A stretch of 49,515 bases of DNA. It comes from a virus. A program made the translations under genes and the position numbers. The stretch spans positions 1-49,515 of the IMG/VR virus record IMGVR_UViG_3300013093_004893; one strand, written 5' to 3'. Shown one piece after another: positions 1,772 through 43,524 of this stretch. Numbering within the stretch: position 1 is the stretch's first letter; each line of letters opens with the position of its first letter. The notes beneath the pieces were generated by a model. That model was not told the origin of the DNA. It made no database searches and worked only from the letters and a program-made list of their open reading frames with translations.

Positions 1772-1772
1772 A

Positions 1773-2837: not shown

Positions 2838-2851
2838 CGCCTTTTCCTTGA

Positions 2852-3730: not shown

Positions 3731-3795
3731 GTGCTTTTCCTTGGCAATTATTTTAAATTTATTAATACTATCCATGATATCAATAATAACAACAG

Positions 3796-4623: not shown

Positions 4624-5084
4624 TGCGATCCTGGAACTGTCTGTGTGAAGGTAAATGAACCTAGTGGTACATTTATTGTTGTGCTATTACCTAAATTGTC
4701 AGTGACAACTAAATTTATACTACTGCCTAGATTTTGCCAGAATATTGTATTGCCCTGAAAGGTAAAATTACCAGAAGTGGCAGTACCAGCTTGAAACATA
4801 GATGTTGCCAAATTCTGACTTATTTCTGCATAAATTCTACTTTGAAGATTGGATAAAAATTGATTGAGGGGTGTGTTTTGGGCCGCAGTTATTGCTTGCT
4901 GTTTAGCAGCCTGTAAAGCCTGTTCTACCGCCTGTTGGCGTGTATATTCTGTATTTTCAATCTGCAGTTCAAATGTGCCATAATTGTTGCCATTAAATGC
5001 AGGATTTTTAAATGTAAAATCAGGCAGCGGTGCAGCAACTACAACTATTGGTATCAACATAAAGAAAGTAAAATACTTTAACAT
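4620..5084 (-). CDS. csgF: CsgF-like curli assembly factor
   Basis: 154 aa with a short signal peptide (about residues 1-17). The mature N-terminus DFTFKNPAFNGNNYGTFELQ matches the CsgF region that plugs into the CsgG pore (E. coli: TFQFRNPNFGG). A Gln/Ala-rich helix (about residues 50-75) and a C-terminal beta part (INLVVTDNLGNSTTINVPLG) follow, as in CsgF. CsgF couples CsgG secretion to nucleation of curli at the cell surface. It is the first gene of the curli-like operon; a weak GAG lies before the ATG and an AT-rich leader (5085-5159) contains a late-octamer-like TTTAAATA. Confidence 0.87.
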   Translation of the reverse strand: MLKYFTFFMLIPIVVVAAPLPDFTFKNPAFNGNNYGTFELQIENTEYTRQQAVEQALQAAKQQAITAAQNTPLNQFLSNLQSRIYAEISQNLATSMFQAGTATSGNFTFQGNTIFWQNLGSSINLVVTDNLGNSTTINVPLGSFTFTQTVPGSQ

Positions 5085-7394: not shown

Positions 7395-7425
7395 TATTTA
7401 TAATGCGAATTTCTGCATATGTCAA
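7395..7425 (-). promoter_or_regulatory. hsp20 promoter (TTGACA-N17-TATAAATA)
   Basis: TTGACA (7420-7425) and TATAAA (7397-7402, extended to TATAAATA at 7395-7402) are 17 nt apart. The octamer matches the T4 late consensus and also makes a near-consensus sigma70 -10, so the promoter may be read both early and late. The TGA in the -35 is the S21 stop codon. Confidence 0.75.
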
Positions 7426-7733
7426 GACTGATTTTCAACATTATTGATTGGAGAACGATTTACAGTTTTCAACTCTTTTTTTGTCTTTTTCTTTTTGGGC
7501 AATTCAAGTTCCATGATTTGAGCATGTTTTTTCTTCCATCGAAGTTTTGCTTCAGCAAGTTTTTGACGACGAGTAATACTTGGTGGTACATAGTGTTTGC
7601 GCTTTCGCAACTCTTTGTTAATACCTTCACTATTCATACGACGTTTTAGTTGCACAATAGCGCCTTCGATATTATTGTTGTAAACTTTGACAGACATGCC
7701 CTTTTTACGAAGCACGAATTCATCACTGTCCAT
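7422..7733 (-). CDS. rpsU: Ribosomal protein bS21
   Basis: 103 aa from the ATG at 7733 (AAGGA 8 nt upstream); a longer TTG reading to 7793 runs into infC and is discarded. The bS21 core is VYNNNIEGAIVQLKRRMNSE, INKELRKRKHYVPPSITRRQ, then a long basic tail. bS21 binds the 30S platform next to the anti-Shine-Dalgarno and is loosely held, so phage copies can exchange into host ribosomes. Twelve extra residues precede the usual start, and the C-terminal ~20 residues are non-canonical. Placed after infC. Confidence 0.9.
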   Translation of the reverse strand: MDSDEFVLRKKGMSVKVYNNNIEGAIVQLKRRMNSEGINKELRKRKHYVPPSITRRQKLAEAKLRWKKKHAQIMELELPKKKKTKKELKTVNRSPINNVENQS

Positions 7734-7763
7734 TAAATTTTTCCTTCTACTATAGACAAAATA

Positions 7764-7793
7764 ATTATAAACATTTATTAGATTACGGGTCAA
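7764..7793 (-). promoter_or_regulatory. S21 promoter inside the 3' end of infC
   Basis: TTGACC (7788-7793), 18-nt spacer, TATAAT (7764-7769). The -35 overlaps the last codons of infC. Confidence 0.7.
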
Positions 7794-8361
7794 TTTTTTT
7801 GGCAGGTGCCAATATCGCAGAAATGCTTCTACCTATCATTTCAGGTGATTTTTCCACTTTATAAGCGTCTAAGCCTTTAATAAATTTTTCCATGACTTCA
7901 AACCCTAACTCACGGAATGTCATTTCTCTACCCCGAAATTTTATTACAACTTTTACCTTGTTGTTGTCGGCAAGAAACTCTCTTGCATGTTCCTGCTTGA
8001 CTGCGATATCGTGTTTATCAGTAACAGGTCGAAGTTGAATCTCTTTGATCACAATAGTATTTTCGCGGGCTTTCTTTTCTTTAAGTTTTTGTTCCTGCTT
8101 TAACTTGTAAACCCACTTGTTAAGATCAACAATGCGTACCACGGGAGGGTTAGCAGAACGATTTATTTCAATTAAATCCAACCCTTCATTTCTAGCCTGT
8201 GTAAGTGCCTCTCTGCTAGATACAAGCCCAACCTGGTTGCCATCAATGTCTAGTAATCGCACCTGTGGGTGTCTAATTGCATCATTGTAAACCAGAGTTG
8301 ATTTTATTGGATCAACAGGACGCCTGTTATTTGACCGATTATTTTGAAAAGTTCCGCTCAA
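7783..8361 (-). CDS. infC: Translation initiation factor IF-3
   Basis: 192 aa (E. coli 180). The N-domain shows VRLLDIDGNQVGLVSSREAL and LDLIEINRSANPPVVRIVDL; a Lys-rich linker follows; the C-domain has IKEIQLRPVTDKHDIAVKQ, VKVVIKFRGREMTFRELGF and the final EKSPEMIGRSISAILAP. IF-3 blocks subunit joining and proofreads start codons. The start is TTG overlapping the clpX TGA (TTGA), with no obvious Shine-Dalgarno, so translation is probably coupled to clpX; no other in-frame start precedes the first domain. Non-AUG starts in infC genes are known to be autoregulatory. Confidence 0.93.
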   Translation of the reverse strand: MSGTFQNNRSNNRRPVDPIKSTLVYNDAIRHPQVRLLDIDGNQVGLVSSREALTQARNEGLDLIEINRSANPPVVRIVDLNKWVYKLKQEQKLKEKKARENTIVIKEIQLRPVTDKHDIAVKQEHAREFLADNNKVKVVIKFRGREMTFRELGFEVMEKFIKGLDAYKVEKSPEMIGRSISAILAPAKKIDP

Positions 8362-9602
8362 GATACAACATCCTGATCGTTTGCATAGACACGTAAAGGT
8401 TCATTCATATTTTCAACTGTTTCCTTTGTTATACAGATTTTTTTAACACCAGATTTAAAAAGCGTTGGCAATTCAAATTGAACACCAAGCAAAATTTGTT
8501 CAACAATACTACGAAGACCTCTGGCACCAGTTTTCCGCAAAATTGCTTCACAGGCAATTGCTTTTAAACTTTCTGGTGTGAACTCCAAAATAATATTATC
8601 TAGTTCAAACATCTTTTGAAATTGCTTGATAATAGCATTTTTTGGTTCAGTCAGAATTTTTACCAAAGATTCTTCATTCAAGTCTTCAAATGTTACAACG
8701 ATGGGAAGACGACCAATCAATTCAGGAATAACTCCAAACTTAACAAGATCATCACTTCTGACCTGCTTGATAAGTTCATAGTTATTGATTTTTGTTGTTT
8801 GTTCTTTAACAACTGAACCAAATCCAATTCCTGTATTATTGTGATTTTGACGGATTTCTATGATTTTGTCAAGACCTTCAAACGACCCACCAACAATAAA
8901 AAGAATATTTTTAGTGTTAATTGTTACAAAGTCTCCATTTGGATTTTTTCGACCACCTTGTGGTGGAATTTTTACTTCACAGCCCTCAATCATTTTAAGC
9001 AAAGCCTGTTGAACACCTTCGCCGCTTACATCTCTAGTAATTGAGACATTTTCGCCTTTGCGGCCTTTTTTATCAATCTCATCAATATAAACAATACCAC
9101 GTTCAGTTTTTGCTACATCTTGGTCTGCTGCATGATATAATTTGGCAATAGCATCTTCAACATCAAGACCAACATAACCACTTTCTGTTAAGCTTGTTGC
9201 ATCAACAATACTGAATGGCACATCAAGAATTTTCGCAACATTCTGAATGGTATAGGTTTTGCCAGTTCCAGAGCCACCAATAAAAAGCATGTTGCTTTTA
9301 TCTATAGTAACACCATCAATTTCTGGATTATTAATCCGCTTGATATGGTTGTAAATTGCAACTGCCAAAGTTCTTTTGGCAATATCTTGTCCCACAACGT
9401 GCTCGTCTAAACGTTCTTTTACTTTTGCAGGTGTGATAGAGTCATCTGGTAGATTTTTGGGAACTTCCTTTTTTAAAATACTAAAGCATAAAGTTACACA
9501 TTCATCACAAATGTAAACATCATTTCCTGCTATAAGCTTTTTAACTTGCTGTTGATTCTTTTCACAGAAACTACAGCGATGATATTCTTTTGTTGCAGTC
9601 AT
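8358..9602 (-). CDS. clpX: ClpX, AAA+ unfoldase
   Basis: 414 aa, close to E. coli ClpX (424). Domains in order: N-terminal C4 zinc-binding domain (CSFC...YICDEC, residues 9-38); Walker A GGSGTGKT; pore-1 loop GYVG; Walker B IVYIDEID; sensor-2 TGARGLRS. The ClpP-docking loop is kept (TGIGFGSV, IGF motif). In the pore-2/RKH region the phage reads GGRKNP where E. coli has GGRKHP, so the His that helps read ssrA tags is Asn. ClpX unfolds substrates and feeds ClpP; no clpP is in the window, so host ClpP is the likely partner. It starts 2 nt after the upstream gene's stop and overlaps infC. Confidence 0.97.
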   Translation of the reverse strand: MTATKEYHRCSFCEKNQQQVKKLIAGNDVYICDECVTLCFSILKKEVPKNLPDDSITPAKVKERLDEHVVGQDIAKRTLAVAIYNHIKRINNPEIDGVTIDKSNMLFIGGSGTGKTYTIQNVAKILDVPFSIVDATSLTESGYVGLDVEDAIAKLYHAADQDVAKTERGIVYIDEIDKKGRKGENVSITRDVSGEGVQQALLKMIEGCEVKIPPQGGRKNPNGDFVTINTKNILFIVGGSFEGLDKIIEIRQNHNNTGIGFGSVVKEQTTKINNYELIKQVRSDDLVKFGVIPELIGRLPIVVTFEDLNEESLVKILTEPKNAIIKQFQKMFELDNIILEFTPESLKAIACEAILRKTGARGLRSIVEQILLGVQFELPTLFKSGVKKICITKETVENMNEPLRVYANDQDVVS

Positions 9603-16158: not shown

Positions 16159-17118
16159 ATGAATATTTATATACAACAAATTCATTCTCTATGTCTACAA
16201 AACAAATACACTAACTGGTATGTAAAGATTATCGAGAATGCAATCAATAGACAAGAAATAATCGGATATTCGGAAACACATCATATTCTCCCAAAATGCT
16301 TTCGATTAGGAGGCGACCATGATCTCGAGAACCTCGTTGATCTCACTGCAAAAGAACATTTTATCTGTCATATGCTATTGGTCAAGATGGTCGGTGACAA
16401 TCAAATGAAATCAAAGTTAGCATATGCAAATTGGCAAATGACGATGAGGAGTAATGGCAGGGATCGATACAAAATTTGTGCCCAACAATATGAATTTCTA
16501 CGAAAACAACTATCCAAATTCACCAAAGGATTGCCAAAAACTGAAGAAGCTAAACAGAAAATGCGCAAACCAAGAACAACCACAGTAAATATGCGAAAAC
16601 CAAAAAGTGTCCCAAATTGGAATAAAGGTGGAACTATATCAGACGAGCAAAAACTGAAACAGTCTATTGCAATGCGAGGAAAATTGGTTGGTGAGAAAAA
16701 CGGTTTTTATGGAAAAACTCATAGCGATGAAACAAAACAACATTTGCGAGAACTGAATGCAGGAAAGCAATTATCTGATGAACATCGACAAAACATTAGC
16801 AACGCACAAAAAGGCAAGCCGACTTGGAATAAAGGAAAACCTGCAACAGACGAACATCGAAAAAATGTTAGTGCAGGATTGACCGGACAAATATTCATAA
16901 CAAATGGAGTTGAAAATAAGAGGATTTGGCCGAAAGATCTTGAAAACTATGATTTGACTGTTTGGTATAGAGGTAAGACTACTGCGCCTATTCCAAAATT
17001 AGCAGGACAAATATTCATAACAAACGGTATCGATAACAAGCGTATCAATCCTGAAGATTTCATCACATTTGATCAAACACTTTGGAGAAGAGGACAGACA
17101 AGAAAACGGCGACAGTAA
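16159..17118 (+). CDS. HNH homing endonuclease with NUMOD-like repeats
   Basis: 319 aa, plus strand among minus-strand genes. The HNH motif is ETHHILPKC with later LVDLTAKEHFICH. It is followed by NUMOD3-type DNA-contact repeats (EEAKQKMRKP, DETKQHLRELNAGK, DEHRQNISNAQKGK, DEHRKNVSAGLTG). The C-terminus holds two near-identical units, GQIFITNGVENKRI and GQIFITNGIDNKRI. Free-standing HNH genes like this cut neighbouring DNA of related phages. Start set by AGGAGG in a hairpin loop 16145-16150. A perfect terminator overlaps the stop codon. Confidence 0.88.
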   Translation: MNIYIQQIHSLCLQNKYTNWYVKIIENAINRQEIIGYSETHHILPKCFRLGGDHDLENLVDLTAKEHFICHMLLVKMVGDNQMKSKLAYANWQMTMRSNGRDRYKICAQQYEFLRKQLSKFTKGLPKTEEAKQKMRKPRTTTVNMRKPKSVPNWNKGGTISDEQKLKQSIAMRGKLVGEKNGFYGKTHSDETKQHLRELNAGKQLSDEHRQNISNAQKGKPTWNKGKPATDEHRKNVSAGLTGQIFITNGVENKRIWPKDLENYDLTVWYRGKTTAPIPKLAGQIFITNGIDNKRINPEDFITFDQTLWRRGQTRKRRQ

Positions 17119-26679: not shown

Positions 26680-26740
26680 AATATACAGGTGAAATTGAGT
26701 CCGTTCTGTTTCTAGGTGGAACCCATACCCAATGAGGTTA

Positions 26741-26782
26741 TGCCGCTAGGGCAGTTTCCTCAAATGCAACATTATCGTTGGC
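26741..26782 (-). other. tmRNA proteolysis tag reading frame (ANDNVAFEETALAA)
   Basis: Fourteen codons from GCC (resume codon) to GCA, then TAA. Starts AND and ends ALAA like bacterial ssrA tags. The C-terminal LAA is the ClpX-recognised degron; this genome also carries clpX. Confidence 0.9.
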
Positions 26783-26883
26783 ATTTATAGTTTTTGAACT
26801 GATTGTGAGTCGTATCTTACTCATTGCCTACCTCAACCCTTACCACAGCTGATCGAACCTAGTCACCCCCATCATAAGCACAC

Positions 26884-26947
26884 AATACCAAAGTAAATTT
26901 ACACGGAATACCAAAGTAAATTTACACGGAATACCAAAGTAAATTTA
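26884..26947. repeat. Tandem 23-bp repeat (2.8 copies) in the tmRNA intervening segment
   Basis: Unit AATACCAAAGTAAATTTAC + ACGG at 26884-26906, 26907-26929 and a partial third copy 26930-26947. Each full unit contains the 10-bp palindrome GTAAATTTAC. The segment is expected to be removed when the two-piece tmRNA matures. Confidence 0.85.
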
Positions 26948-27018
26948 TGCTCTTATGGTGGAGCGGGCGGGGCACTGCCCCCCGCGTCCAGTCAATTGTT
27001 CTTTTTCCTTCATACAAT

Positions 27019-27026
27019 CATAAATA
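27019..27026 (+). promoter_or_regulatory. T4-like late promoter octamer CATAAATA (GIY-YIG gene)
   Basis: Lies in the 5' arm of a long RNA stem whose 3' arm ends at the Shine-Dalgarno AAGGG of the GIY-YIG gene. Confidence 0.5.
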
Positions 27027-27111: not shown

Positions 27112-27864
27112 ATGTTTTATATTATATACAAAACAATCAATCTTGTCAACAATAAATTTTATATTGGCAAACATCGCCAAACTATTGATCCGTATCAATT
27201 TGACGGTTATTATGGATCCGGTTCCCAGATAATCAATGCTGTAAAAAAGTATGGCAAAGATAATTTCGTTAGGGAAACTTTGTTTGTGTTTGAAAATGAA
27301 TCTGAATGTTTGCTCAAAGAAGAAGAAACAGTAGCACCGCACCTGGGTAAATCATATTGTTATAATATGCGGTCAGGTGGTATAGGTGGGTTTGAACACA
27401 TAAATTCTATACCAAAAGAAGATAGACCAAATATTAAGGCATATCGTCAAAAAGTTGATTCAGGTGAGATTGTAGTAGGCGGAACTCAAAATTGGACCGA
27501 AGAAACTTACAATAAAGTTAGGCAAACAGGTTGGTCTAAATTAGTAGAAATGGGATTGTTAAATCCTAATACTTGGGAAAATCTAACGGAAGATCAAAGA
27601 AAAGAAAGATCCGAAAACTTATCTAAAAAAGTTTCTGGTAGCAACAATGGTTCTTATGGAACAAAGTTCTACTACAACCTAACAACAAAAGAAAAGAAGC
27701 GATTCGGACCCAAAGATGTTATTCCCAACGGATGGGTAAGTTCTGTAGATTATTTTGAATCAAAGAAAAAGACCCACTGGTATAACAACGGGTCTAAAAG
27801 TTATTTGTTAAAAATAGGTGATCCTAAAATTCAGCAGTTGGGGCTGGTCAAAGGAAGATTGTAA
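27112..27864 (+). CDS. GIY-YIG homing endonuclease
   Basis: 250 aa, plus strand between minus-strand genes. GIY-YIG domain at the N-terminus: FYIIYKTINLVNNKFYIGKH, then GYYGSGSQIINAVKKYGKDN and FETL-like strand, ending SYCYNMRSGGIGGF. The C-terminus has a W-Y-N-N-G unit (THWYNNGSKSYLLKIGD, LGLVKGRL) almost identical in style to the repeats of the HNH protein at 38881-39972. Seg/I-TevI-type enzymes act as free-standing mobile genes. It is divergent from the tmRNA gene. Confidence 0.88.
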   Translation: MFYIIYKTINLVNNKFYIGKHRQTIDPYQFDGYYGSGSQIINAVKKYGKDNFVRETLFVFENESECLLKEEETVAPHLGKSYCYNMRSGGIGGFEHINSIPKEDRPNIKAYRQKVDSGEIVVGGTQNWTEETYNKVRQTGWSKLVEMGLLNPNTWENLTEDQRKERSENLSKKVSGSNNGSYGTKFYYNLTTKEKKRFGPKDVIPNGWVSSVDYFESKKKTHWYNNGSKSYLLKIGDPKIQQLGLVKGRL

Positions 27865-28535: not shown

Positions 28536-28856
28536 TTAATTTGGAACTAGTACGATTTTGGTTGTATTAGTCTGTGGATCAATCATTTGTTGCCAATGGT
28601 ATCCCGCTGGAGGAGCCTGAACATATGGCTGTGGCTGTGTATAGATTACAGGTGGTTGTTGAACAATGACTGGGGATGGTTCGTAATAGTGCGGACGACT
28701 TAACTCGTATCCAATTACTCCGCCAATCAATGCTGGTGCTACCCAATTACATCCGTAGCATCCTCCACGATATCCTCTAAATCCTTCATGTGCCTGTACA
28801 GTACAAGCACCCATTCCAGCACCAATTAATAAAAATGATAACAATAACTTTTTCAT
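28536..28856 (-). CDS. Exported Gly/Pro/Tyr-rich protein
   Basis: 106 aa with GGAG 7 nt before the ATG. Signal peptide MKKLLLSFLLIGAGMGACTV (possible lipobox GMGAC), a short hydrophobic Gly segment (ALIGGVIGYELSRP), then a Pro/Gln/Tyr-rich tail (PPVIYTQPQPYVQAPPAGYH). This layout occurs in small bacterial envelope proteins. Role unknown. Confidence 0.6.
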   Translation of the reverse strand: MKKLLLSFLLIGAGMGACTVQAHEGFRGYRGGCYGCNWVAPALIGGVIGYELSRPHYYEPSPVIVQQPPVIYTQPQPYVQAPPAGYHWQQMIDPQTNTTKIVLVPN

Positions 28857-28906
28857 AATAAATCTCCAAAAATGGATTAATCATTGACGGAATCCAAAAA
28901 GCATGA

Positions 28907-29509
28907 ACGGGATCCGCCAGATGCTGAAACATGCCTTTGAGATTGTGTAATATGGGCTCACCTTTCATTTCAATGCGTCCTGCATTAATATGAAATTTCA
29001 ACTTTCTTCCAATGGAATCTGCAAATTGGACAGCACAAATTGCTTGAAGTAAATGATTTTTAAGGGGGCGTATGGCTCCAAAACATGATATATTAATATA
29101 TTCATTGCTGGGATTGAACTTTTTATATTTGTATTCCTGCGGATAAAAGTTGGGCATGTAAATGATACGTTGGGCTGTTTCTGCATTAGACCACCCATAT
29201 ACTTGTTGTAGATAAAACCGTGTCTCATCCATCATGCGGGGTGCATTAACACCTATTATGATATTGGGAAATCGTGCATAATCGCCAATCCAATCCATGG
29301 CAATACCTTCACTGGCAATAAAAGGCATTTCGCTGTGCAGACGTATAATCCAAGTTACGTTTGGATGCAGTTTTGATAAGATTTCAAATTTACTAGGTAC
29401 CACCCAAAGTGCTTCAATGACCACATGTGTAGGTTGGTATGCACGTACTTCTCTATCAATGCAGTTGTTGTCAATGGCAACAAACATTTTGCTTTCAACA
29501 CCAGCACGG
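28907..29509 (-). pseudogene. Glycosyltransferase gene fragment (partial copy of 32030-33085)
   Basis: About 200 codons stay open and match the middle of the full-length gene closely, from AGVESKMFVAIDNNCIDREV to GMFQHLAD. The first ~45 and last ~100 residues of the full protein are missing, and both ends run into unrelated sequence. The longest ORF here (28786-29487) continues past the homology into the next gene region. It may still make a truncated protein. Confidence 0.8.
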
Positions 29510-32029: not shown

Positions 32030-33085
32030 TTATTTATCCTGAAAATAATTCAACCAAATTTTTCGTGTTTGGTTTGTGTAGGCAGTCAAACTATATTGAT
32101 TTGTCATCACATTTAATTCTGGGAACCGCCAGACTCTTTTTAGTTTTTTTATAATATCAGTTCTTTCTACTGGATTTGCACAGAACCATCGAATAGCCCA
32201 GGGCATTTCTCGGCTGGTAACAACAGGCACTCCTTGACTTAAATGATCAGCAGCAACTATATTGAATGTTTCAGATATACTTGCCTGCATGCCAATATCC
32301 ATTTCAGCACAAATCTCTAAAAACTTATCGCGAGGAGTCCATTCATGACTGACCAATTGGTGTCCTTTGTCTGCCAAGTGCTGGAACATTCCTTTCAGAT
32401 TATTAAGTATTGGCTCACCTTTCATTTCAATGCGTCCACTGTTTATGTGAAATCTGCATTTTCTACCCAGTGACTCGGCAAATTCTACTGCACAAATAGC
32501 TTGTAATAGGTGATTTTTAAGTGGTCGTATTGCACCAAAACAACTTATATTTAAATATTCGTTATCTGGATTAAATGTTTTAGTTTTATAATCTTGTGGA
32601 TAAAAATTTGGCATGTATATAACACGCCGGTCTAACTCATCCTCTGTCCAATCATATACTGTTTGAAGAAACGTTTTTGTTTCCTCCATCATTCGTGGTG
32701 CATTGACTCCTATGATAATATTTTTAAATCTGGCATAATCACCCAGCCAATCCATGGCTATACCTTCACTTGCAATAAAAGGCATTTCACTGTGCAGTCG
32801 TATTATCCAAGTTACAGTGGGGTGCAGTTTTGATAAAACATCAAATTTAGTGGGTACAACCCAAAGTGCTTCTATAATTACGTGTGTTGGTTTGTAGGCG
32901 CGAACTTCTCTGTCAATACAATTATTATCAACAGCCACAAACATTTTGCTTTCTACACCTGCTTCCTGAAGCATAGTGTCCATGAATTTTACACTGTTAA
33001 ACAGACCAGTGCTTATACCAACATGATTATGAATTTTTTGATTATAATCTGGGCGTCTTTTTAGAATGAAAAGTATTCGTGCCAT
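32030..33085 (-). CDS. GT-B glycosyltransferase (GT4-like)
   Basis: 351 aa. N-domain: MARILFILKRRPDYNQ with GISTGLFNSV; middle: ISCFGAIRPLKNHLLQAICA, the usual start of the nucleotide-sugar domain; C-domain: SETFNIVAADHLSQGVPVVT with the E-x7 region. Likely retaining transferase acting on DNA, a virion protein or host glycan. A second, truncated copy lies at 28907-29509 in the same orientation. Confidence 0.78.
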   Translation of the reverse strand: MARILFILKRRPDYNQKIHNHVGISTGLFNSVKFMDTMLQEAGVESKMFVAVDNNCIDREVRAYKPTHVIIEALWVVPTKFDVLSKLHPTVTWIIRLHSEMPFIASEGIAMDWLGDYARFKNIIIGVNAPRMMEETKTFLQTVYDWTEDELDRRVIYMPNFYPQDYKTKTFNPDNEYLNISCFGAIRPLKNHLLQAICAVEFAESLGRKCRFHINSGRIEMKGEPILNNLKGMFQHLADKGHQLVSHEWTPRDKFLEICAEMDIGMQASISETFNIVAADHLSQGVPVVTSREMPWAIRWFCANPVERTDIIKKLKRVWRFPELNVMTNQYSLTAYTNQTRKIWLNYFQDK

Positions 33086-35950: not shown

Positions 35951-37043
35951 CAGGCAATTGATCGTAATTTAGATCTGCTGACAAAACTCCAATTACATAA
36001 TTGGTTGATTCATTTTCTTGCAGAGCAGTTTGCTTTTTGCTGGGATTGGCATGTTTGTTAAACCATGGAATAGGAGTTGTTCGTGGTGCAGAACCTTTAT
36101 ATTTGATTCCAATATCTTTTAGTGCCGCTGATGCTGTAAAATCCACAAAATCTTTTAAAATCGCTGCGTTCAATCCAATCACAGGGCCTTTTATAAACAG
36201 ATAGTCAGCCCAGGATTTTTCTTCCTGTATCACACTATTATACATGGCATATACTTCATCTTCACATTCCCGTTTAGCCTGTGCAAAACGTGTGTCTTCT
36301 TTTACTACTTGATTGATCATCCAGGCTGTCCACTCTTTGTGCAAAAGTTCATCTTGAAGGATAAGGCTGATAATATTACCATTACCGATGAAAATTCTAT
36401 TTTCAACCATGGCCAAGCTTGTTGCAAAACTAACCATGAACCTGAAAGCTTCGAGTGCATAACTGGCATTCAATGCCAACCAAATAGCCTTGATATGCTC
36501 GTATTCATCAACTGGTATTCCCAGTTCTTTTTTACAATTTACAACATGTAAATCATTGTAATATTTACCAATATTTGCAGCCATATCAACGATTTCCTGG
36601 GTATCATGTATTGTGTTGAATACATCTTTTGGAACGTTATAGATATTTTGAATAATATGACTGTAACTTTTACTGTGAATATTAGTTTCAAAAGCACTCC
36701 AAATAGATACAAGTGCTTCGATTTCGGGCAGGCTTAGTACAGGTGAGAATACCTGTATTGGAGCGCGTCCTTGAAGACTGTCAAGTGCAGTCTGTCGTAG
36801 AAGATTACTGGTAAAAATATGTTTTACAGCCTCGCTGGCATTTTTGAAATCAGAGGCATCTTTGGTGAGAGAGATTTCTTCTGGAACCCAGAAAAATCCA
36901 CGTTGCTCCTGTTCATATTTGGCAATTTTTGGGTACCTATACTCCTCGAATCTTTGTACGGTTACTGGACCAGCAGGGTCCAAAAACATCTTTCTGTTAA
37001 GATAATCCGTTTGTTTTGACAAATCATATTGTTGATTACTCAT
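35943..37043 (-). CDS. nrdB: NrdB, class Ia ribonucleotide reductase small subunit
   Basis: 366 aa (E. coli 375). Metal ligands are visible: D in ALDSLQGRAP, E and H around the radical Tyr in WSAFETNIHSKSYSHI, E in ALEAFRFMVSFA, and E-x-x-H in LQDELLHKEW. In the second block the spacing is E-x3-H, one residue more than the usual E-x2-H. The C-terminus ends in the acidic/hydrophobic tail that docks NrdA. AAGGA precedes the ATG, which overlaps the HNH gene. Confidence 0.95.
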   Translation of the reverse strand: MSNQQYDLSKQTDYLNRKMFLDPAGPVTVQRFEEYRYPKIAKYEQEQRGFFWVPEEISLTKDASDFKNASEAVKHIFTSNLLRQTALDSLQGRAPIQVFSPVLSLPEIEALVSIWSAFETNIHSKSYSHIIQNIYNVPKDVFNTIHDTQEIVDMAANIGKYYNDLHVVNCKKELGIPVDEYEHIKAIWLALNASYALEAFRFMVSFATSLAMVENRIFIGNGNIISLILQDELLHKEWTAWMINQVVKEDTRFAQAKRECEDEVYAMYNSVIQEEKSWADYLFIKGPVIGLNAAILKDFVDFTASAALKDIGIKYKGSAPRTTPIPWFNKHANPSKKQTALQENESTNYVIGVLSADLNYDQLPDV

Positions 37044-37803
37044 TATTCTTTTTCCTTGCGTGATATTCTTTCATTTTCATACTGTGATGGGCGTTCTGCT
37101 CTGGGGTTCTGCCAGGACGATTTTTATACGACTCCCTAAGATTTTTTTTATGTTCTTCTGTGCGAACTCTCCCAATTAATGGATGAATCGGTTTAACATA
37201 AGCAGGAATACTATCACTGTATTCATATCTCAATTGTTTACCTTTACAATATGAAAATCTACCTTCCGCCGTATACTTAACATTCGATGGGTTTGTATTC
37301 AGGTGTTCGGCACAATCGGATATAGTCCTAAATTCCTTATAAAATGATCCGTCTAAATTATATGCATACACTTTGACACCAACAGATTCAATCATTGATT
37401 TTTTTACAGCCAATGAAATTAGTTTCTTTTTTTCAGTTGTATGAGTTTTACCTAACATCCCACGTGGATGTCCATTTTTTTGAATCCAGTTCTTAGTTTG
37501 TTCTGACATAACCAACGCACATTGCCTTCTCAACCATCCAAAAAGTTTGTTATTGACCCTGACATCGGTGTGATGAACTGTCATAAGTTGTGTTGCGTAA
37601 ATCAAATCTCTATTTCCTGGATACATTTTTATTAATAACTGATGTGCCAAAAAGTGTTCTTCAGGAGTCAATATAGCAATGTTACTTGGTTCATCTGTTC
37701 CACCTAAGCATTTGGGGACTATGTGATGTTTTTCCACATATCCCTCAAGTATTCTGGTTTTACTTCTTTCTATAAGTTTTTCGTAGTGTTTTTTGTAGTT
37801 CAT
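37036..37803 (-). CDS. HNH homing endonuclease between nrdA and nrdB
   Basis: 255 aa. HNH: EKHHIVPKCLGGTDEPSNI and LTPEEHFLAHQLL. NUMOD-type units follow (VYAYNLDGSFYKEFRTISDC with EHLNTNPSNVKYTAEG; RTEEHKKNLRESYKNRPG). Same strand as nrd genes, overlapping the nrdB start by 8 nt. No Shine-Dalgarno; AATAAATA sits 5 nt before the ATG and a 15-bp inverted repeat lies just upstream. Confidence 0.88.
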   Translation of the reverse strand: MNYKKHYEKLIERSKTRILEGYVEKHHIVPKCLGGTDEPSNIAILTPEEHFLAHQLLIKMYPGNRDLIYATQLMTVHHTDVRVNNKLFGWLRRQCALVMSEQTKNWIQKNGHPRGMLGKTHTTEKKKLISLAVKKSMIESVGVKVYAYNLDGSFYKEFRTISDCAEHLNTNPSNVKYTAEGRFSYCKGKQLRYEYSDSIPAYVKPIHPLIGRVRTEEHKKNLRESYKNRPGRTPEQNAHHSMKMKEYHARKKNNE

Positions 37804-37808
37804 AACTT

Positions 37809-37816
37809 TATTTATT
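37809..37816 (-). promoter_or_regulatory. Late-promoter-like octamer AATAAATA
   Basis: Exactly 5 nt before the ATG at 37803. Confidence 0.45.
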
Positions 37817-37851
37817 CACTAAATAATAGTAGTTATTATTATTTAGTGAAT
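37814..37851. repeat. Perfect 15-bp inverted repeat between nrdA and the HNH gene
   Basis: ATTCACTAAATAATA (37814-37828) and its complement TATTATTTAGTGAAT (37837-37851), 8-nt loop. It sits just past the nrdA stop and may act as terminator or RNA-stability hairpin. Confidence 0.7.
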
Positions 37852-37854
37852 ATA

Positions 37855-38829
37855 CTACAATTTACAGGAGTCGCAGGATTCCTCGTCATAATCGTCCGGC
37901 TGTATAGTTTGAGTTTGTACACTATGTTTGGATAAATCCTGTTTTACTCCCTGCTTTGAAATTAGGCTATAATATAGTCCCTTTCCGCCCCATTTCATAA
38001 AATTCATCAAATTCTTTGCAATCAGAGTTGTAGGAATTTTTCCATCCGGAAAATGAGCAGGATTATAGAATGTATTCGTGCTGATACTCTGATCAACATA
38101 TGCCTGTATCACAGCAGCGGTCTTGAGATAATCCACACAATCTGTTTGGTCCCACATTAATTGATAGCGAGATTTCAGACGGTTATATTCTGGTACTACT
38201 TGTACCAGAGAACCTGCCTTGCTTTCTTTTGTTGTGATCAAACTCATTGGCATCTCGATACCGTTAGTAGAGTTAATAACCACGGAACTACTTTCTACTG
38301 GTGCCACTGCCATGAGAGTTGCATTTCTTACTCCGTATTTCTTCATCTGTTCGCGTAGTGGTTCCCAGTCTAGTTCTGGAGTGAAATCTGCTAGTTCATT
38401 TACACCGGCATTTCTGCGTTCCCAGGGAAAAATTCCCTGTCCATAATATGTTTTATCGCTGTGAAGACATTTACCGCGTTCTTGTGCAAGTTCAACGGTT
38501 GCTTCTGTTAGGTAATATGCACAGTGTTCTTGCCATGATTTAACTTCTGCCAATGCTTCTGGTGTTCCGTAACGAAGTCCTCTTTTTGCATGCCAATAGG
38601 CAAGGTTTGTGATTCCTATTCCAATAGGTCTGATTTCATCATTGCTCAACTTACTTTGAATACTCAAAAAGTCTTGATAATCTAGAATGTTGTTGAGACT
38701 GCGAAGAAGGATTCTGCAAGCCCTACGCATGTCCTCTGGATTTCTAAATGCACCCCAATTCACTGATCCAAGAGTACACAGAGCTATTTTTGGTACTTCA
38801 CGAGTGCATTCTTTTTTAATTATTTTCAT
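37855..38829 (-). CDS. nrdA: NrdA C-terminal piece (class Ia ribonucleotide reductase large subunit)
   Basis: 324 aa. After an 8-14-residue non-homologous start (MKIIKKECTREVPK), it matches E. coli NrdA from IALCTLG (Cys462 equivalent) to the C-terminus. WSYY-equivalent KGLYYSLI carries the Tyr730/731 radical pair and the tail ends CDSCKL, the swinging Cys pair that glutaredoxin reduces. It must assemble non-covalently with the 39953-40963 piece, because no intein C-terminus precedes it. Confidence 0.92.
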   Translation of the reverse strand: MKIIKKECTREVPKIALCTLGSVNWGAFRNPEDMRRACRILLRSLNNILDYQDFLSIQSKLSNDEIRPIGIGITNLAYWHAKRGLRYGTPEALAEVKSWQEHCAYYLTEATVELAQERGKCLHSDKTYYGQGIFPWERRNAGVNELADFTPELDWEPLREQMKKYGVRNATLMAVAPVESSSVVINSTNGIEMPMSLITTKESKAGSLVQVVPEYNRLKSRYQLMWDQTDCVDYLKTAAVIQAYVDQSISTNTFYNPAHFPDGKIPTTLIAKNLMNFMKWGGKGLYYSLISKQGVKQDLSKHSVQTQTIQPDDYDEESCDSCKL

Positions 38830-38847
38830 TTTTTTAATTCCATTTCA

Positions 38848-38864
38848 TATAAATACTATTTATA
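38848..38864. promoter_or_regulatory. Back-to-back late promoters (palindrome TATAAATA-C-TATTTATA)
   Basis: TATAAATA on the plus strand (38848-38855) points to the HNH gene at 38881; TATAAATA on the minus strand (38857-38864) points to the NrdA C-terminal piece. One nt separates them. Confidence 0.7.
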
Positions 38865-38880
38865 CAGCATAAGGTACACA

Positions 38881-39972
38881 ATGCATAAAATTAACACAAA
38901 TTCCATTTATTGGTCTAGATATACTAAATTTATTAATACCAGACAAACGAGAATCATACCACCAAATTCTATGGTAGAACTTCATCATATTGTCCCCAAA
39001 TGTGCAGGCGGCGACGATTCTGTTTCTAATTTGATCGAACTTACTGTACGAGAACATTTTATTGCACACTGGATGCTTTCTAAAGTTGGAATCGACGATG
39101 TGTGGTATAAACTTCGTTTTGCTTTTGGTTGTATGAGTGTTTATAGCAAGTCTAATTCTTATAGAAATTTTCTCACATCTAGACAATTTGAAATTTCTAA
39201 AAAAATCAGAAAAGAAACTTTTAAGATGTGGAATGACCTCAATCCTTCTAAAGCCAAAGGAACATCTTGGTATGTCGACGAAGATGGTGTTAGATATAGA
39301 TGTCATCCAGATTCTCCTAAAATAAAAGAATTTAACTTAAAAATGCAGGCCCCTGGAAAAGGTAAAAAATGGTATACAGATGGTAATAAATTTTTTATGT
39401 TATTTGAAACTGATCCGGTGATTTTATCATTAAATCTGCAACCTGGCTGCCCAATTAAAGGGGTGGAAAAACAATATTCAGTTGAAACTTTAAAAAGTTT
39501 ATCTGAGGATCGGGCGGGCAGATTTTGGTTCAACGACGGAAAACAGTCATATAAACTAAAATTAAACGACGTTAAAATAAAAGATTTAGGTCTTTCTGTT
39601 GGAAGACTTATATCACCAGACGGCTTAGAGCGAATTAAAAGCGGTGCCGCGTGGAAAAGAACTCCCGAAGATAATTTGAAAAATTCACTCAGGCAACAAT
39701 CAAAAATGAGATTCAATGACGGCGTTAGAAATTTCACATTAGATCCAGATGATCTATTAATTTCGCAACTATCATTAATTCCGGGTGTCATATTAACACA
39801 GGAAGGCAGGGAAAAAATATCATTATGTGCTAAAAACAAAGATACCTCATATATTGTTGGAAAAAAATGGTTTAATGACGGCATAAAAAACTACAGATTG
39901 TTTGAAGACGAAGGATTAAAAATGGGATTGGTAAGAGGGAAATTGTACACCTCTAAACCAAAAGGTCTTTAA
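38881..39972 (+). CDS. HNH homing endonuclease (MobE-like) splitting nrdA
   Basis: 363 aa, opposite strand to nrdA. HNH: VELHHIVPKCAGGDDSVSNL and LTVREHFIAHWML. Then at least four DNA-contact units of the form W-F/Y-x-D-G: KKWYTDGNKFFML, FWFNDGKQSYKLK, MRFNDGVRNFTLD and KKWFNDGIKNYRLF, each followed by a short L-x-L-x-x-G motif. AAGG precedes the ATG and an exact late promoter lies upstream. The 3' end overlaps the nrdA middle piece by 20 nt. Confidence 0.88.
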   Translation: MHKINTNSIYWSRYTKFINTRQTRIIPPNSMVELHHIVPKCAGGDDSVSNLIELTVREHFIAHWMLSKVGIDDVWYKLRFAFGCMSVYSKSNSYRNFLTSRQFEISKKIRKETFKMWNDLNPSKAKGTSWYVDEDGVRYRCHPDSPKIKEFNLKMQAPGKGKKWYTDGNKFFMLFETDPVILSLNLQPGCPIKGVEKQYSVETLKSLSEDRAGRFWFNDGKQSYKLKLNDVKIKDLGLSVGRLISPDGLERIKSGAAWKRTPEDNLKNSLRQQSKMRFNDGVRNFTLDPDDLLISQLSLIPGVILTQEGREKISLCAKNKDTSYIVGKKWFNDGIKNYRLFEDEGLKMGLVRGKLYTSKPKGL

Positions 39973-40963
39973 TATCGTCGTCATCGGTTAATTCTCTCAC
40001 CTTCTTTTTTTCGCCGTTTGATAATAGAACTTTATGCTGTCCAGGTAATGTTATTTCTTGACCATTATCTAATGTTAGTTTGAATTCGCCTTCATCGTCT
40101 AGACTATTGAATGGTTTTGTGGGAAGTAGAATTTCTAGACATAAATTACTTTGATAAATTGTATGGATATTTGTGTCAAATGGTCCTTGACGCTGAACAT
40201 TGTCAATATAAACCAGATATATTCTGCCAGTATCGGTTCGCTCCTTGAGAATTCCGCCTCTAAACACTTCTTCTGCACTCATTGTTTTGGTACTTAGATC
40301 ACGTCTTTGTTCGTATTTTACATAAAGTTTTTCAAACAAATCTATGTCTTGATAAAATGCTTCATAAAGATCTGGAACTTCATTGGGATCAAAGAAGGTG
40401 ATATTCTCTTTATTTTTAAATCTACGCCAGAAAAAAGCAGATAAAACCACACCATAATCCATATGACGTACTCGTGTTTCTTCAGTCCCTTGATTATTTT
40501 TAAGAACTATAAGATCATCAAATTGATGATGCCATATCGGATAAAAAATTGTCGCACTATTGTGGGCTAATAATAATTTATCTGGTTCTATCCCTGCATA
40601 ATAATTTTCATGTTCATCAATGCTAAAATCGGCATATTGAGTTGATACGTTAGGAGAAGTTACTTCTTTAACTTTATCTTTTTTGTTGATAATAGACACT
40701 ACATAATCTGCCGTAGTAATATCACCACCCTTTACATATTTGATTTTTCCAAATTCATTGATTGCAGTAGGATGTGTGTCGCTCGTGATTAATTTAGCAT
40801 CCGATGTTGATGTAATTTTTACTTGGTGTTCATGTGGAACTATCGGTCTCATGACATTTAATACTTTACGATATACATCCGTTTGTGTTTCAATATCACA
40901 AGATAGTACCAAATCTCCCAATTTTACTTCATCAATTTTAACTCTGTTCGATAAAAATTTCAT
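39953..40963 (-). CDS. nrdA: Intein C-part fused to NrdA middle piece
   Basis: 336 aa. Residues 1-~125 are the C-part of a split intein: VKLGDLVLSCDIETQ, block B TSDTHPTAI, and the end YADFSIDEHENYYAG...LLAHN, followed by Ser+1. From SATIFYPIWHHQF it is NrdA, including SNLCLEI (radical Cys439 equivalent). After GEF (about residue 295) come ~40 residues (KLTLDNGQEITLPGQHKVLL) that are not NrdA but resemble an internal block of a Hint domain. Splicing would join it to the 41824-42942 product. Confidence 0.9.
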   Translation of the reverse strand: MKFLSNRVKIDEVKLGDLVLSCDIETQTDVYRKVLNVMRPIVPHEHQVKITSTSDAKLITSDTHPTAINEFGKIKYVKGGDITTADYVVSIINKKDKVKEVTSPNVSTQYADFSIDEHENYYAGIEPDKLLLAHNSATIFYPIWHHQFDDLIVLKNNQGTEETRVRHMDYGVVLSAFFWRRFKNKENITFFDPNEVPDLYEAFYQDIDLFEKLYVKYEQRRDLSTKTMSAEEVFRGGILKERTDTGRIYLVYIDNVQRQGPFDTNIHTIYQSNLCLEILLPTKPFNSLDDEGEFKLTLDNGQEITLPGQHKVLLSNGEKKKVRELTDDDDIKDLLV

Positions 40964-41867
40964 TTATTCTGTCCTTCAAGTCGGATGATATTTCTTTGTC
41001 GTCTAATATTGTTTTATAACCAAGAACCTCTTCGATTGCAACAATACAATATTGACCTTTTCTGCAATTTTCTTTTTTTGGTATTAGTTGTAAATTTTGA
41101 TAACTTCCTATAATTAATGGATGTATCTTGTTGACAAATCCGCCATATTTGGAAAATTTGTGATCAACAGCGTATCCATTCTTACCATAAATTATACCTA
41201 ATTTGTTTTTTTCCGGATCGATGATATTTCCATATACAGCAATCGATATTTTGGTAGCTGTTCTTACTGCATCACAATAACTGTCGTAATTATCATAACT
41301 AAATTTCTTCAAAACAGGCCCGTGTTCTGTCCGACTATTTTTAAACCAACGAATTAATTTTGCCTCGTGTTTAACAGTAGATGCCCGAGATAAAAAAGTT
41401 TCTTGACGATTTTTAATTTTAGATTGGTATTCATTCCATTTGTCTTTGCCGATTGTTTCTCCAAACCTCGTTATATATGATTCCAATGAAGGGAGACGAC
41501 CTATATCAGACCTATATTGTTGTGCTCGTATTTCAGCATCTTCTAACGAATACCCTTTAGATACCCAGTGATTTGAATTTGACGGGGTTGTTTTTTGTTT
41601 TTTTCGTGTTTTTCGTTTTTCATTAATTAAAAGAACTGCTTCTTCTTCAGTTTTACCCCGAGATATATAATATTCAATTGACCACGGGCTATTTTTTGCC
41701 CTATCTTTTCGAAGGTTTTTGTCGATTTTGTTAAACTCTTCGCCACACTTGAATTCTTTGAGATACTCATTTAAATTCATTCTGTTATGTCTCATAGTCA
41801 GATGTCGTTGTAACTGGCTCACGTTAGCCGAGCAAATTTTGCAAATATGCATCTCTTTCATCATCAC
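40938..41867 (-). CDS. Homing endonuclease inside the split-intein gap
   Basis: 309 aa. N-terminal C2H2-like finger (CKICSANVSQLQRHLTMRH). C-terminal nuclease-like block YGKNGYAVDHKFSKYGGFVN then HPLIIGSYQNLQLI and KKENCRKGQY, an HNH/Vsr-type arrangement with D-H and N. It overlaps the upstream intein-N ORF by 44 nt and the downstream intein-C ORF by 26 nt. This matches the known 'fractured gene' arrangement of split intein plus endonuclease in phages. Confidence 0.8.
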   Translation of the reverse strand: MMMKEMHICKICSANVSQLQRHLTMRHNRMNLNEYLKEFKCGEEFNKIDKNLRKDRAKNSPWSIEYYISRGKTEEEAVLLINEKRKTRKKQKTTPSNSNHWVSKGYSLEDAEIRAQQYRSDIGRLPSLESYITRFGETIGKDKWNEYQSKIKNRQETFLSRASTVKHEAKLIRWFKNSRTEHGPVLKKFSYDNYDSYCDAVRTATKISIAVYGNIIDPEKNKLGIIYGKNGYAVDHKFSKYGGFVNKIHPLIIGSYQNLQLIPKKENCRKGQYCIVAIEEVLGYKTILDDKEISSDLKDRINEIFIEQS

Positions 41868-42942
41868 TTCCCATATAGGCTAAAATAGTTAGCACATCAG
41901 TTATATTTATCACTTTGTCATCTTTTTTAATTATGTCACCTTGATAATAATTTTTGCCGTTAAATTCAAATCCAGTTAATTTGTCTACATATGAGTCTAT
42001 GTGTACACATGCGTTCCTGATTCCTCCTTGACTGCATGACCGCAGATCCCCGTACCACTTTTTTAGAAATGGTATCATCCCTGTGTGCATGATTTCTCCG
42101 CCTCGTATAGGACTACCCAGAGGACGTAAGCGACCAATTTCAAGACCTATGCCAGCACGCTTGCTGGCATACTTGGCCATCATTTCACCACTGGCAAAAA
42201 TACTGTCTAAATCATCGTCAGTTTTAATAAGCACACACGAACTGAATTGCTTGGTTGGGGTTCCCAATCCAGCCAACACTGGAGTGGCAAGTGTGAACAA
42301 TCCATCAGATGCACTCTGATAGTACTCTTTGATATATCTTAAGCGAACAGTATTTGATGATTCGGCATGAAATACTGTTGCAGCAGCAACCATATAACGT
42401 ATTTGAGGAGTTTCATAAATTTGGTTGGTAGCACGATTGCGAACAAGGTACTTTTCAATCATCTGTTCAATTGCAGCATATGAATACTGTTCATCTTTGT
42501 CATGATCCAGCATGTCATTCATTTTATTCCAGTCGTCTTCACTATACCATTCTAGCAATTCGGGGGTATATAACCCTACTTCAACATTTTTTTTAACAAT
42601 AGAATAAAGGTGTGGGACATTATAAGATTGGTAGACATCTTTTCTAAGCATACTGAGACGTTGTTTGCCAGCAACATATTGATAATTTGTATGTCCAGTG
42701 CCTTGATTGCTGTCAACGTCTATGAGGTCAACAATGGCTCGTAGTGTTATGCCATCAATTTCTGTTGTTTTTATACCATTATAAAAATGTGGTTGTGCCT
42801 TTATTTCTATCATGGACTGGCTGACATCTGCGACATTTTTACATACTTTGGCAATCTGTGCTTGCCACTTCTCTATGTTTAATTTTTCTTGTCTACCATC
42901 TCGTTTGATAACATAAATTTCTCCTGATTTTGGGAGAGCCAT
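41824..42942 (-). CDS. nrdA: NrdA N-terminal piece fused to intein N-part
   Basis: 372 aa with AAGGA. ATP-cone at the N-terminus (VIKRDGRQEKLNIEKWQAQI), then the NrdA core with FSSCVLIKT (Cys225 equivalent) and KRAGIGLEIGRLRPLGSPIR. NrdA ends at GGIRNA, and the intein N-part begins CVHIDSYVDKLTG; the frame stops about 60 residues later (YLQNLLG). The junction is at the same point where the next piece resumes (SATIFYPIWH), as in E. coli GGAATLFYPMWH. Confidence 0.92.
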   Translation of the reverse strand: MALPKSGEIYVIKRDGRQEKLNIEKWQAQIAKVCKNVADVSQSMIEIKAQPHFYNGIKTTEIDGITLRAIVDLIDVDSNQGTGHTNYQYVAGKQRLSMLRKDVYQSYNVPHLYSIVKKNVEVGLYTPELLEWYSEDDWNKMNDMLDHDKDEQYSYAAIEQMIEKYLVRNRATNQIYETPQIRYMVAAATVFHAESSNTVRLRYIKEYYQSASDGLFTLATPVLAGLGTPTKQFSSCVLIKTDDDLDSIFASGEMMAKYASKRAGIGLEIGRLRPLGSPIRGGEIMHTGMIPFLKKWYGDLRSCSQGGIRNACVHIDSYVDKLTGFEFNGKNYYQGDIIKKDDKVINITDVLTILAYMGSDDERDAYLQNLLG

Positions 42943-43008
42943 AACATTATTCCTTTATTAAAAATTACAAATTCAAAGAGGTAAAAGTCATTTATTCACT
43001 GATTCTAA

Positions 43009-43524
43009 TTAATTAACACCGGTTACATCAATGTTAATATATGATCTTTTGCTATGTAAATTTGAACACACAAAATGTTTATTATCATAGACATATTTCT
43101 GTTGTATGATAGTATCTGTATCCAATCCAGATCTATTGAAAATAGCGTTGTATTCATAGTTAAGAATCCATTTGTCATCTACCTGAAGGACGACGCCCTG
43201 AAACTGTTGTTGTTGGTTTTTTAATATCATAAGTTTTAATCTCTCTGAATTCCATCTGCCATCAGCAGATAAAAGTAAAGTATAAAACATTCCCAGTGAA
43301 ATTGCACATTCATCAAAATTATTTTGGTGTATAAGTTGCCACGGATCTGGCCACAAATCTGGTCTATCCCAGTCTAGGACTCTGCCAGATATGGGACAAT
43401 ACGCCCAAAAATTTACGACATTTTCCAAATGTTTGTAATCAATTAATTCCGATGTAAGATTTGAACGCAAAGTTTTCCATGATTGTAAAAGATGTGTGCT
43501 GCTGGAAAAATTTATTGCGAGCAT
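43009..43524 (-). CDS. Conserved hypothetical phage protein (171 aa)
   Basis: 171 aa with GAGAGGA. The block LWPDPWQLIHQNNFDECAIS with ALGMFYTLLL-type helix (SLGMFYTLLLS) is a recurring phage motif that looks like a small transglutaminase-like or zinc-like core, but no catalytic triad is clear. Function unknown. Confidence 0.6.
   Translation of the reverse strand: MLAINFSSSTHLLQSWKTLRSNLTSELIDYKHLENVVNFWAYCPISGRVLDWDRPDLWPDPWQLIHQNNFDECAISLGMFYTLLLSADGRWNSERLKLMILKNQQQQFQGVVLQVDDKWILNYEYNAIFNRSGLDTDTIIQQKYVYDNKHFVCSNLHSKRSYINIDVTGVN

What the first reader, a model, noticed from the sequence alone, without database searches (positions are those of the whole stretch)
39953..42942. Fractured nrdA: split intein with a homing endonuclease in the gap
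The NrdA frame stops at GGIRNA, an intein N-part (C1) follows, then a separate endonuclease ORF overlaps both sides, then an intein C-part ending LLAHN before Ser and NrdA again. The N-part is short (the conserved strand is only the first ~10-25 residues), like atypically split inteins. This is the 'fractured gene' arrangement reported for phage-type sequences, here with a C2H2-finger endonuclease.
Basis: partly seen in the sequence, partly recalled or inferred. Interest (0 to 1): 0.85.

Follow-up and report, generated by a model that had tools for sequence, protein, structure and literature searches.

The report
Twice-broken phage nrdA with split intein
A virus of bacteria known from environmental DNA carries the gene for a key DNA-building enzyme in three pieces, broken by two selfish DNA-cutting genes: one break is probably sealed by a split self-splicing protein, while the other is probably never sealed and seems to be held together by a docking tail that moves with the selfish gene.

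Summary
On the minus strand nrdA stops matching at GGIRNA. A 61-aa intein N-part starting with Cys follows, then an endonuclease ORF overlapping both neighbours, then a 135-aa intein C-part ending LLAHN before Ser. The C-part is a Hint domain supplying all but about the first 8-10 residues of the fold, so the split is atypical; the rest of the N-part is a conserved extension matching no intein tested. The unit is mobile: 95-100% identical between phages whose nrdA flanks are near-saturated at silent sites. In one lineage it has outlived its endonuclease. Fractured nrdA genes with split inteins are already known.

There nrdA ends in a 43-aa tail and restarts, beyond an antisense HNH endonuclease, with a 14-aa head. 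The tail has no Cys1, the head no HN end, so it cannot splice. The tail occurs in 50 fetched loci, in nrdA wherever upstream sequence exists (49), never fused to the head where visible (48). Various ORFs, or nothing, lie between. Tail, endonuclease and head transfer as one unit. The tail resembles the middle of an intein. Best reading: break 1 is trans-spliced; break 2 is a permanent two-chain split held by an intein-derived docking tail. Splicing is not shown.

The parts
42010..42942 (-). NrdA N-extein, 311 aa, ends SCSQGGIRNA (site B lies between E. coli R1 residues 300 and 301)
41827..42009 (-). Intein N-part, 61 aa: CVHIDSYV (block A) plus a ~51-aa extension with no match in the other inteins tested
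40938..41867 (-). HE1: endonuclease with C2H2-like finger at the N-end and HNH-like C-domain (YAVDHK...NLQLIPKKEN); overlaps both neighbours
40972..40976 (-). AAGGA ribosome-binding-like site before the intein C-part start (TAA directly followed by ATG); kept in L003, L004, L096, L097, L098
40559..40963 (-). Intein C-part, 135 aa, SxxH block B, HN end, Ser+1
40085..40558 (-). NrdA middle extein, 158 aa, with the SNLCLE motif (C439 and E441 of E. coli R1)
39956..40084 (-). Site D tail, 43 aa FKLTLDNG...DDDIKDLLV: resembles the middle of an intein, no Cys1
38881..39972 (+). HE2: antisense HNH-type homing endonuclease (phrog_655) inside break 2
38848..38864 (.). Two divergent TATAAATA (T4 late-promoter-like; consensus recalled) between HE2 and NrdA-C starts; kept in L004, L010, L106, L109, L110, L111, L118
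38788..38829 (-). Site D head, 14 aa MKIIKKECTREVPK, on the N-end of NrdA-C
37855..38787 (-). NrdA C-terminal piece from IALCTLG (I459/C462 of E. coli R1) to the C-terminal CDSCKL
37036..37803 (-). HE3: third endonuclease (NUMOD1 above cut-off, HNH below it, phrog_655), between nrdA and nrdB

Best explanation
nrdA is made as three polypeptides. Break 1 (site B): NrdA-N ends in the first strand of an intein plus an extension, and NrdA-mid begins with the rest of the intein. The two associate and trans-splice at Cys1 and Asn/Ser+1, giving NrdA 1-469 plus a tail. HE1 (HNH-like) between them spreads the unit by homing, and the C-part is translated from its own ribosome-binding site at the end of HE1. 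Break 2 (site D): nothing is spliced. NrdA-mid keeps a 43-aa tail and NrdA-C a 14-aa head; these sit between the active-site motifs SNLC and ALCTL and dock the two chains into a working two-chain alpha subunit. Tail, HE2 and head form one mobile unit that brings its own docking parts. Shown: anatomy, homology of the C-part, transfer as units, conservation, persistence of the split intein with a broken endonuclease (one lineage). Inferred: splicing, docking, homing by cleavage, enzyme activity.
For: Site B: C-part profile vs PDB inteins, best E 7.7e-8; window+L098 intein vs 23 other NrdA inteins P 4.5e-13, covering positions 9-140 of 140; AlphaFold model aligned to an intein endonuclease structure (2cw7) at Z 10.4, 105 residues, rmsd 3.3. 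Mobility: window vs L004 and vs L003 (L096 is the same population as L003) silent divergence pS 0.69-0.98 in exteins N and M, but 0-0.056 in N-part, HE1 and C-part; identity of 95-100% falls to 65-82% (L004) past the C-part junction. In L098 (exteins 43-50% identical) HE1 is broken, yet both intein halves show omega 0.14 and 0.10, and start codon and RBS are kept. Site D: 50 loci with the tail (23 distinct tail sequences, counted by me); the 49 with upstream sequence are in nrdA, and in the 48 where the head is visible the two are separate ORFs. Two, L163 and L164, lack any endonuclease (TGA/ATG overlap). Tail vs 25 inteins P 1.2e-5, score 30.5 against a maximum of 17.0 in 200 column shuffles. 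Tail+HE2+head 92-100% identical to L004 and L073 while the NrdA-C flank falls to 58-85%. A split phage NrdA with an endonuclease insert (Aeh1) is reported to work as two chains (PMC2988022, passages).
Against: No splicing, docking or activity was tested. The N-part beyond residue 10 matches neither the cis intein at the same site in IBB_35 nor site C inteins. The head shows no intein homology beyond shuffled heads (23 of 200 reach the score). In Pfam the window tail scores as well against an Ig-like family (Big_4, 0.0081) as against the intein family (0.0076), both below cut-off; a tail profile found no intein in the PDB. The tail+head match depends on the intein set: 4 site C inteins give P 0.0062, 18 give score 25.0 against a shuffle maximum of 24.4, and 7 inteins of sites A, B and E give 18.8 with 1 of 200 shuffles reaching it. 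The AlphaFold model is modest (mean pLDDT 63; C-part residues 1-41 under 50). The two endonuclease-free site D loci are 99.9% identical over that stretch, so they count as one case.
Confidence: 0.72

Rival explanations
1. nrdA is a dying gene: breaks and insertions have destroyed it and no active enzyme is made.
For: Three endonuclease genes crowd the locus; [quoted passage not shown]
Against: All pieces are open and match E. coli R1 at E 1.3e-45 to about 1e-78 with SNLCLE, ALCTL and the C-terminal Cys pair kept. Against L004 pN/pS is 0.08-0.26 in the three extein pieces. Both intein halves are under purifying selection even where HE1 is dead. An intact small-chain gene follows (PF00268, 7.6e-41).
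Confidence: 0.1
2. Site B halves associate but do not splice; both breaks are held by docking only.
For: Site D sets the precedent in the same gene; the N-part carries a long conserved extension of unknown role.
Against: Cys1, SxxH block B, terminal His-Asn and Ser+1 are kept in window, L097 (C-part only), L098 and the cis relative IBB_35, whereas the site D tails lack the first and the heads lack the last.
Confidence: 0.1
3. The site D tail is not intein-derived but an unrelated beta-hairpin or Ig-like insertion.
For: Big_4 scores like the intein family for the window tail; no intein among PDB hits of the tail profile; no head homology; the match weakens with smaller intein sets.
Against: 11 of 13 tails match the Pfam intein family, best E 0.0013, below cut-off; P 1.2e-5 for the tail against 25 inteins with no shuffle near it; the reversed intein profile gives 13.6 against 33.2 for tail+head.
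Confidence: 0.35
4. An ordinary cis intein (or one gene) split by assembly or frameshift error, or a group I intron.
For: None found beyond the overlapping ORFs.
Against: Same arrangement on contigs of about five lineages; no Rfam match at E 1 or better in 37000-43500.
Confidence: 0.02

Closest known systems
Fractured genes with split inteins and an endonuclease between (Dassa et al. 2009; paper not held, content recalled and via PMC3653736 and PMC7891396 passages)
   Same: Conserved phage enzyme gene broken by a split intein with a free-standing endonuclease in the gap; 7 nrdA subunits interrupted by inteins are cited from that study in PMC3653736 (passages).
   Different: Split lies at the extreme N-end of the intein rather than the usual place; N-part has a 51-aa extension; a second, non-splicing break in the same gene.
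Atypically split inteins (VidaL 16 aa, PolB16 OarG 15 aa, AceL-TerL 25 aa N-parts; PMC10189870 abstract and passages, PMC13014065 passages)
   Same: Split near the N-end; long C-part carries nearly the whole Hint fold.
   Different: Published natural N-parts are 15-37 aa (PMC13014065 passages); here 61 aa, of which only ~8-10 align to other inteins.
Aeh1 nrdA-A/nrdA-B genes-in-pieces with mobE (Friedrich et al. 2007 not held; PMC2988022 passages; sequence read)
   Same: Same enzyme, split in the same segment between the NLC and LCTL motifs; extra tails on both chains; endonuclease between.
   Different: Window tail is a different sequence, intein-like; its endonuclease is antisense; tails shown to move with the endonuclease.
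[quoted passage not shown]
   Same: Homologous inteins at the same site (IBB_35) or about 9 residues away (KARL-1).
   Different: IBB_35 is unsplit at this site; KARL-1 has a 12-aa N-part and another ORF in the gap.

Membership tests
Fractured gene (split intein + endonuclease) | Conserved host gene in two ORFs, intein halves at the inner ends, endonuclease ORF between | tested here: met
Fractured gene (split intein + endonuclease) | Relatives with an uninterrupted gene at the site | tested here: met
   70 of the 80 loci kept (the best of at least 599) are empty at sites A and B
Class 1 intein | Cys1, block B T/SxxH, HN end, C/S/T at +1 | tested here: met
   C1, SDTH, LLLAHN, S+1; kept in L097 (C-part) and L098
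Class 1 intein | Splices | not testable with these tools
   needs expression
Atypically split intein | Split near the N-end so that the C-part holds blocks B, F and G | tested here: met
   C-part covers positions 9-140 of 140 of the intein profile
Atypically split intein | Short N-part (15-37 aa in published natural cases) | tested here: not met
   61 aa, though only ~8-10 are Hint-like (range from PMC13014065 passages)
HNH homing endonuclease (HE1) | HNH/His-Me fold | tested here: inconclusive
   motif by eye; no Pfam HNH hit; best Z 4.2 to an HNH nicking enzyme, top Foldseek hit a Cas9 HNH domain at E 1.2
HNH homing endonuclease (HE1) | Moves with its host element | tested here: met
   pS 0.005-0.011 in HE1 against 0.69-0.98 in exteins N and M
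EDxHD/Vsr-like endonuclease family of Dassa et al. (recalled) | Motif and fold of that family | not tested
   paper not held
Split intein at site D | Cys/Ser at position 1 and Asn end | tested here: not met
   tail begins Phe (Leu or Tyr in a few), head ends K, R or other non-Asn before I/V459
Genes-in-pieces RNR (Aeh1 type) | Two chains with extra tails around an endonuclease, no splicing element | tested here: met
   Aeh1 read
Genes-in-pieces RNR (Aeh1 type) | Tail homologous to the Aeh1 tail | tested here: inconclusive
   sequences differ by eye; Aeh1-like tails in L003, L013 and L078 are by eye as well

The most novel reading that the evidence does not exclude
Site D is a new kind of mobile element: a homing endonuclease that carries, on either side, a non-splicing docking pair derived from a split intein. 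Inserting into an essential gene, it turns the enzyme into a permanent two-chain complex instead of relying on splicing. The docking parts stay while endonucleases of several families come, go or vanish, so the broken state is a ratchet.
Probability: 0.38. Interest if true: 0.82.

Novelty: new variant of a known kind. Interest (0 to 1): 0.63.

Why it matters
It puts two solutions to the same problem in one gene: how a selfish endonuclease can sit in an essential enzyme without killing its host. One break is (probably) repaired by trans-splicing, the other is tolerated by docking. The series of states in relatives (empty, cis, split with endonuclease, split with broken or no endonuclease, non-splicing tail) makes the origin of split proteins directly testable. 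The site B intein and the 12-aa N-part of KARL-1 are also candidate tools for protein ligation.

Tried and rejected
Group I intron: no Rfam match in the locus at E up to 1. Assembly error: unlikely, given the other contigs. Head D as start of an intein C-part: looked right by eye but shuffled heads do as well, so dropped. N-part extension as the long N-region of the IBB_35 cis intein: not better than shuffles. HE1 as an IPA-HNH enzyme: dropped after reading that the name means AP2-associated HNH. PDB search with the tail profile: no intein; the single window tail had a weak top hit, 4o1r, E 0.34, labelled replicative DNA helicase, which I recall as a DnaB intein. The single C-part likewise gave only weak hits, best 2jmz at 0.34. 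Tail D in prokaryote genomes: the scan of genome contigs found none. A fused tail-head ORF: none among the 48 of 50 loci with the head in view. T4-type late promoters: the count in the window is not unusual (8 found, 9 of 100 shuffles reach it); only the conserved divergent pair is notable. VIA and Foldseek lists for HE1 held only weak HNH rows among others; absence of others means nothing. Paper searches listed no title on intein-derived docking tails; one search returned nothing at all, the library is partial, and I saw listings, abstracts and passages only.
Full report
WHAT IS THERE. The window is a 49.5-kb virus record. On the minus strand nrdA (class Ia ribonucleotide reductase, large chain) occupies three ORFs, with two endonuclease genes inside it and a third before the small-chain gene. 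The order is: NrdA 1-311 + intein N-part (42942-41824), HE1 (41867-40938), intein C-part + NrdA middle + 43-aa tail (40963-39953), HE2 on the plus strand (38881-39972), 14-aa head + NrdA C-piece (38829-37855), HE3 (37803-37036), nrdB (37043-35943). The pieces align to E. coli R1 (1rlr) as 5-301 (the last position being the intein's Cys), 302-456 and 455-759. Site B therefore lies at 300/301 and site D at 458/459, and C439/E441 and C462 end up on different chains.

BREAK 1 IS A SPLIT INTEIN. The C-part alone matches the Pfam families PT-HINT (1.7e-4) and Intein_splicing (0.018), below their cut-offs. All 6 members of its alignment (window, L097, L098, IBB_35, L004, KARL-1) match the intein family, best 7.9e-10. 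The profile of that alignment finds PDB inteins, among them the Pab PolC intein at 8.2e-7 and gp41-1 at 7.5e-6 (best hit 7.7e-8). Cys1, SxxH, HN and Ser+1 are present. Aligned to 23 other NrdA inteins, the site B intein matches from the end of its N-part onward, essentially by its C-part, over positions 9-140 of 140 (P 4.5e-13), so the N-part contributes about the first 8-10 residues of the fold. The remaining ~51 residues of the N-part match nothing tested. They are nevertheless conserved: the N-part is 68% identical in L098, with pS 0.54 and pN 0.23 for residues 11-61.

IT MOVES AND CAN OUTLIVE ITS NUCLEASE. Site B C-parts were found on 10 contigs; a second, alignment-based scan gave the same 10. 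They amount to about five lineages. Between window and L004, and window and L003/L096, extein N and M silent sites are near saturation (pS 0.69-0.98), while N-part, HE1 and C-part show 0-0.056. DNA identity in 60-base blocks is 95-100% through the element and falls to 65-82% (L004) or 63-90% (L096) beyond the C-part junction. In L098/L099 (identical over 8,405 bases, so one observation) the exteins are only 43-50% identical and HE1 is broken by a deletion with frame change. Yet the halves are 68-69% identical to the window's, with omega 0.14 and 0.10. The start codon after TAA and an AAGGA site are kept there and in L097. The C-part is thus most likely translated on its own.

BREAK 2 IS OF ANOTHER KIND. 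The middle ORF ends in FKLTLDNGQEITLPGQHKVLLSNGEKKKVRELTDDDDIKDLLV, inserted after DDEGE; the C-piece starts MKIIKKECTREVPK before IALCTLG. Of the 80 loci kept (a capped list), 66 have no insert at site D, 11 are broken and 3 are not in view by script; of these three, L012 shows the tail and L003 and L013 show another tail type by eye. An alignment search found 50 loci with this tail. 49 have NrdA upstream; one starts inside the tail. The head is visible in 48, and none joins tail and head in one ORF. Ten carry HE2 or a relative, antisense. Two (L163, L164; 99.9% identical here) carry nothing: the stop TGA overlaps the start ATG. Reading 16 of the inserts, I found same-strand ORFs of several types in 15 and an antisense HE2 relative in one. 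Of five same-strand ORFs scanned, two are GIY-YIG by Pfam and three matched no family. So the tail stays while what lies between changes. Tail, HE2 and head are 92-100% identical to L004 and L073 while the NrdA-C flank falls to 58-85%; the more distant L111 shows the same shape at a lower level. The scan of genome contigs found no relative.

WHAT THE TAIL IS. It cannot splice. Its best relatives are the middle of inteins: 11 of 13 tails match the Pfam intein family (best 0.0013, below cut-off), though 8 of 13 also match an Ig-like family. Profile comparison with 25 NrdA inteins gives P 1.2e-5 for the tail, with no shuffle of 200 near it. The head adds no significant signal, and with smaller intein sets the match is marginal. 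The tail is conserved (pooled pS 0.82, pN 0.17 over 8 loci; head 0.61 and 0.21 over 7) and modelled as beta strands at pLDDT about 70-83. I read it as an intein-derived docking tail, with moderate confidence.

MECHANISM. Three chains are made. Site B halves trans-splice. The product keeps the site D tail and pairs with NrdA-C, as the split Aeh1 enzyme is reported to do (PMC2988022, passages). HE1 and HE2 spread their units by homing. Two TATAAATA boxes face away from each other between HE2 and NrdA-C, and the pair is kept in the other HE2-bearing loci read (L004, L010, L106, L109, L110, L111, L118). It may give NrdA-C its own late promoter (consensus recalled).

KNOWN AND NEW. nrdA interrupted by inteins and fractured RNR genes are known (PMC3653736 passages; PMC7891396 passages). 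Natural atypical N-parts of 15-37 aa are published (PMC13014065 passages). New here as far as I could search: a 61-aa N-part of which only ~8-10 residues align to inteins; a second, non-splicing break in the same gene; its tails moving with the nuclease; and a split intein persisting with a dead nuclease. At a further site (after SNLC) split inteins have halves only 6-55 bases apart in 4 of the 16 split loci where both halves were found (18 tried). The literature library is partial, and Dassa 2009 and Friedrich 2007 were not held.

Noticed in passing
window 968-5084: Curli-type secretion genes in a virus record: CsgG (5e-48), CsgF (7e-16), a curlin-repeat protein and a FecR-domain protein.
   Followed up: partly
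window 26738-27019 (-): A permuted tmRNA (RF04321, 82 bits).
   Followed up: no
window 7422-9602: Ribosomal protein bS21 and translation factor IF-3 and a ClpX-like ATPase (ClpX zinc finger 1.9e-17) in a row.
   Followed up: no
L082 1710-5429 (Acinetobacter phage KARL-1): Fractured nrdA in a cultured phage with an intein N-part of only 12 aa (CLTPDTKVEILV), shorter than the natural 15 aa called record-short in print; the ORF in the gap matches DUF7487.
   Followed up: partly
L003, L004, L005, L007, L013, L014 and L006: Another split intein 8 residues upstream of site B, with 19-20-aa N-parts (CVTPDTWVEVL...) and differing ORFs between; L006 has it in cis, with what looks like the C-part start Met kept inside.
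   Followed up: partly
L006 1469 and L009 4733: Two phages 99.9% identical over 6.6 kb from this point of nrdA onwards but about 72% upstream; the change lies beside the site A intein that L006 has and L009 lacks.
   Followed up: no
L097 467-3506: One nrdA with apparently three split inteins (site B, whose N-part is off the contig, after SNLC, and at APVES/SS).
   Followed up: no
L201, L202, L214, L221: Split inteins after SNLC with no room for an endonuclease between the halves (6-55 bases).
   Followed up: partly
window 16159-17118 and 27112-27864 (+): Further endonuclease-like genes: NUMOD3 (8e-15) and a weak, below-cut-off SegE GIY-YIG match.
   Followed up: no
window 28786-29487 and 32030-33085 (-): Two similar proteins (166 of 210 aligned residues identical), the first shorter than the second; neither matches Pfam at 0.001.
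   Followed up: partly
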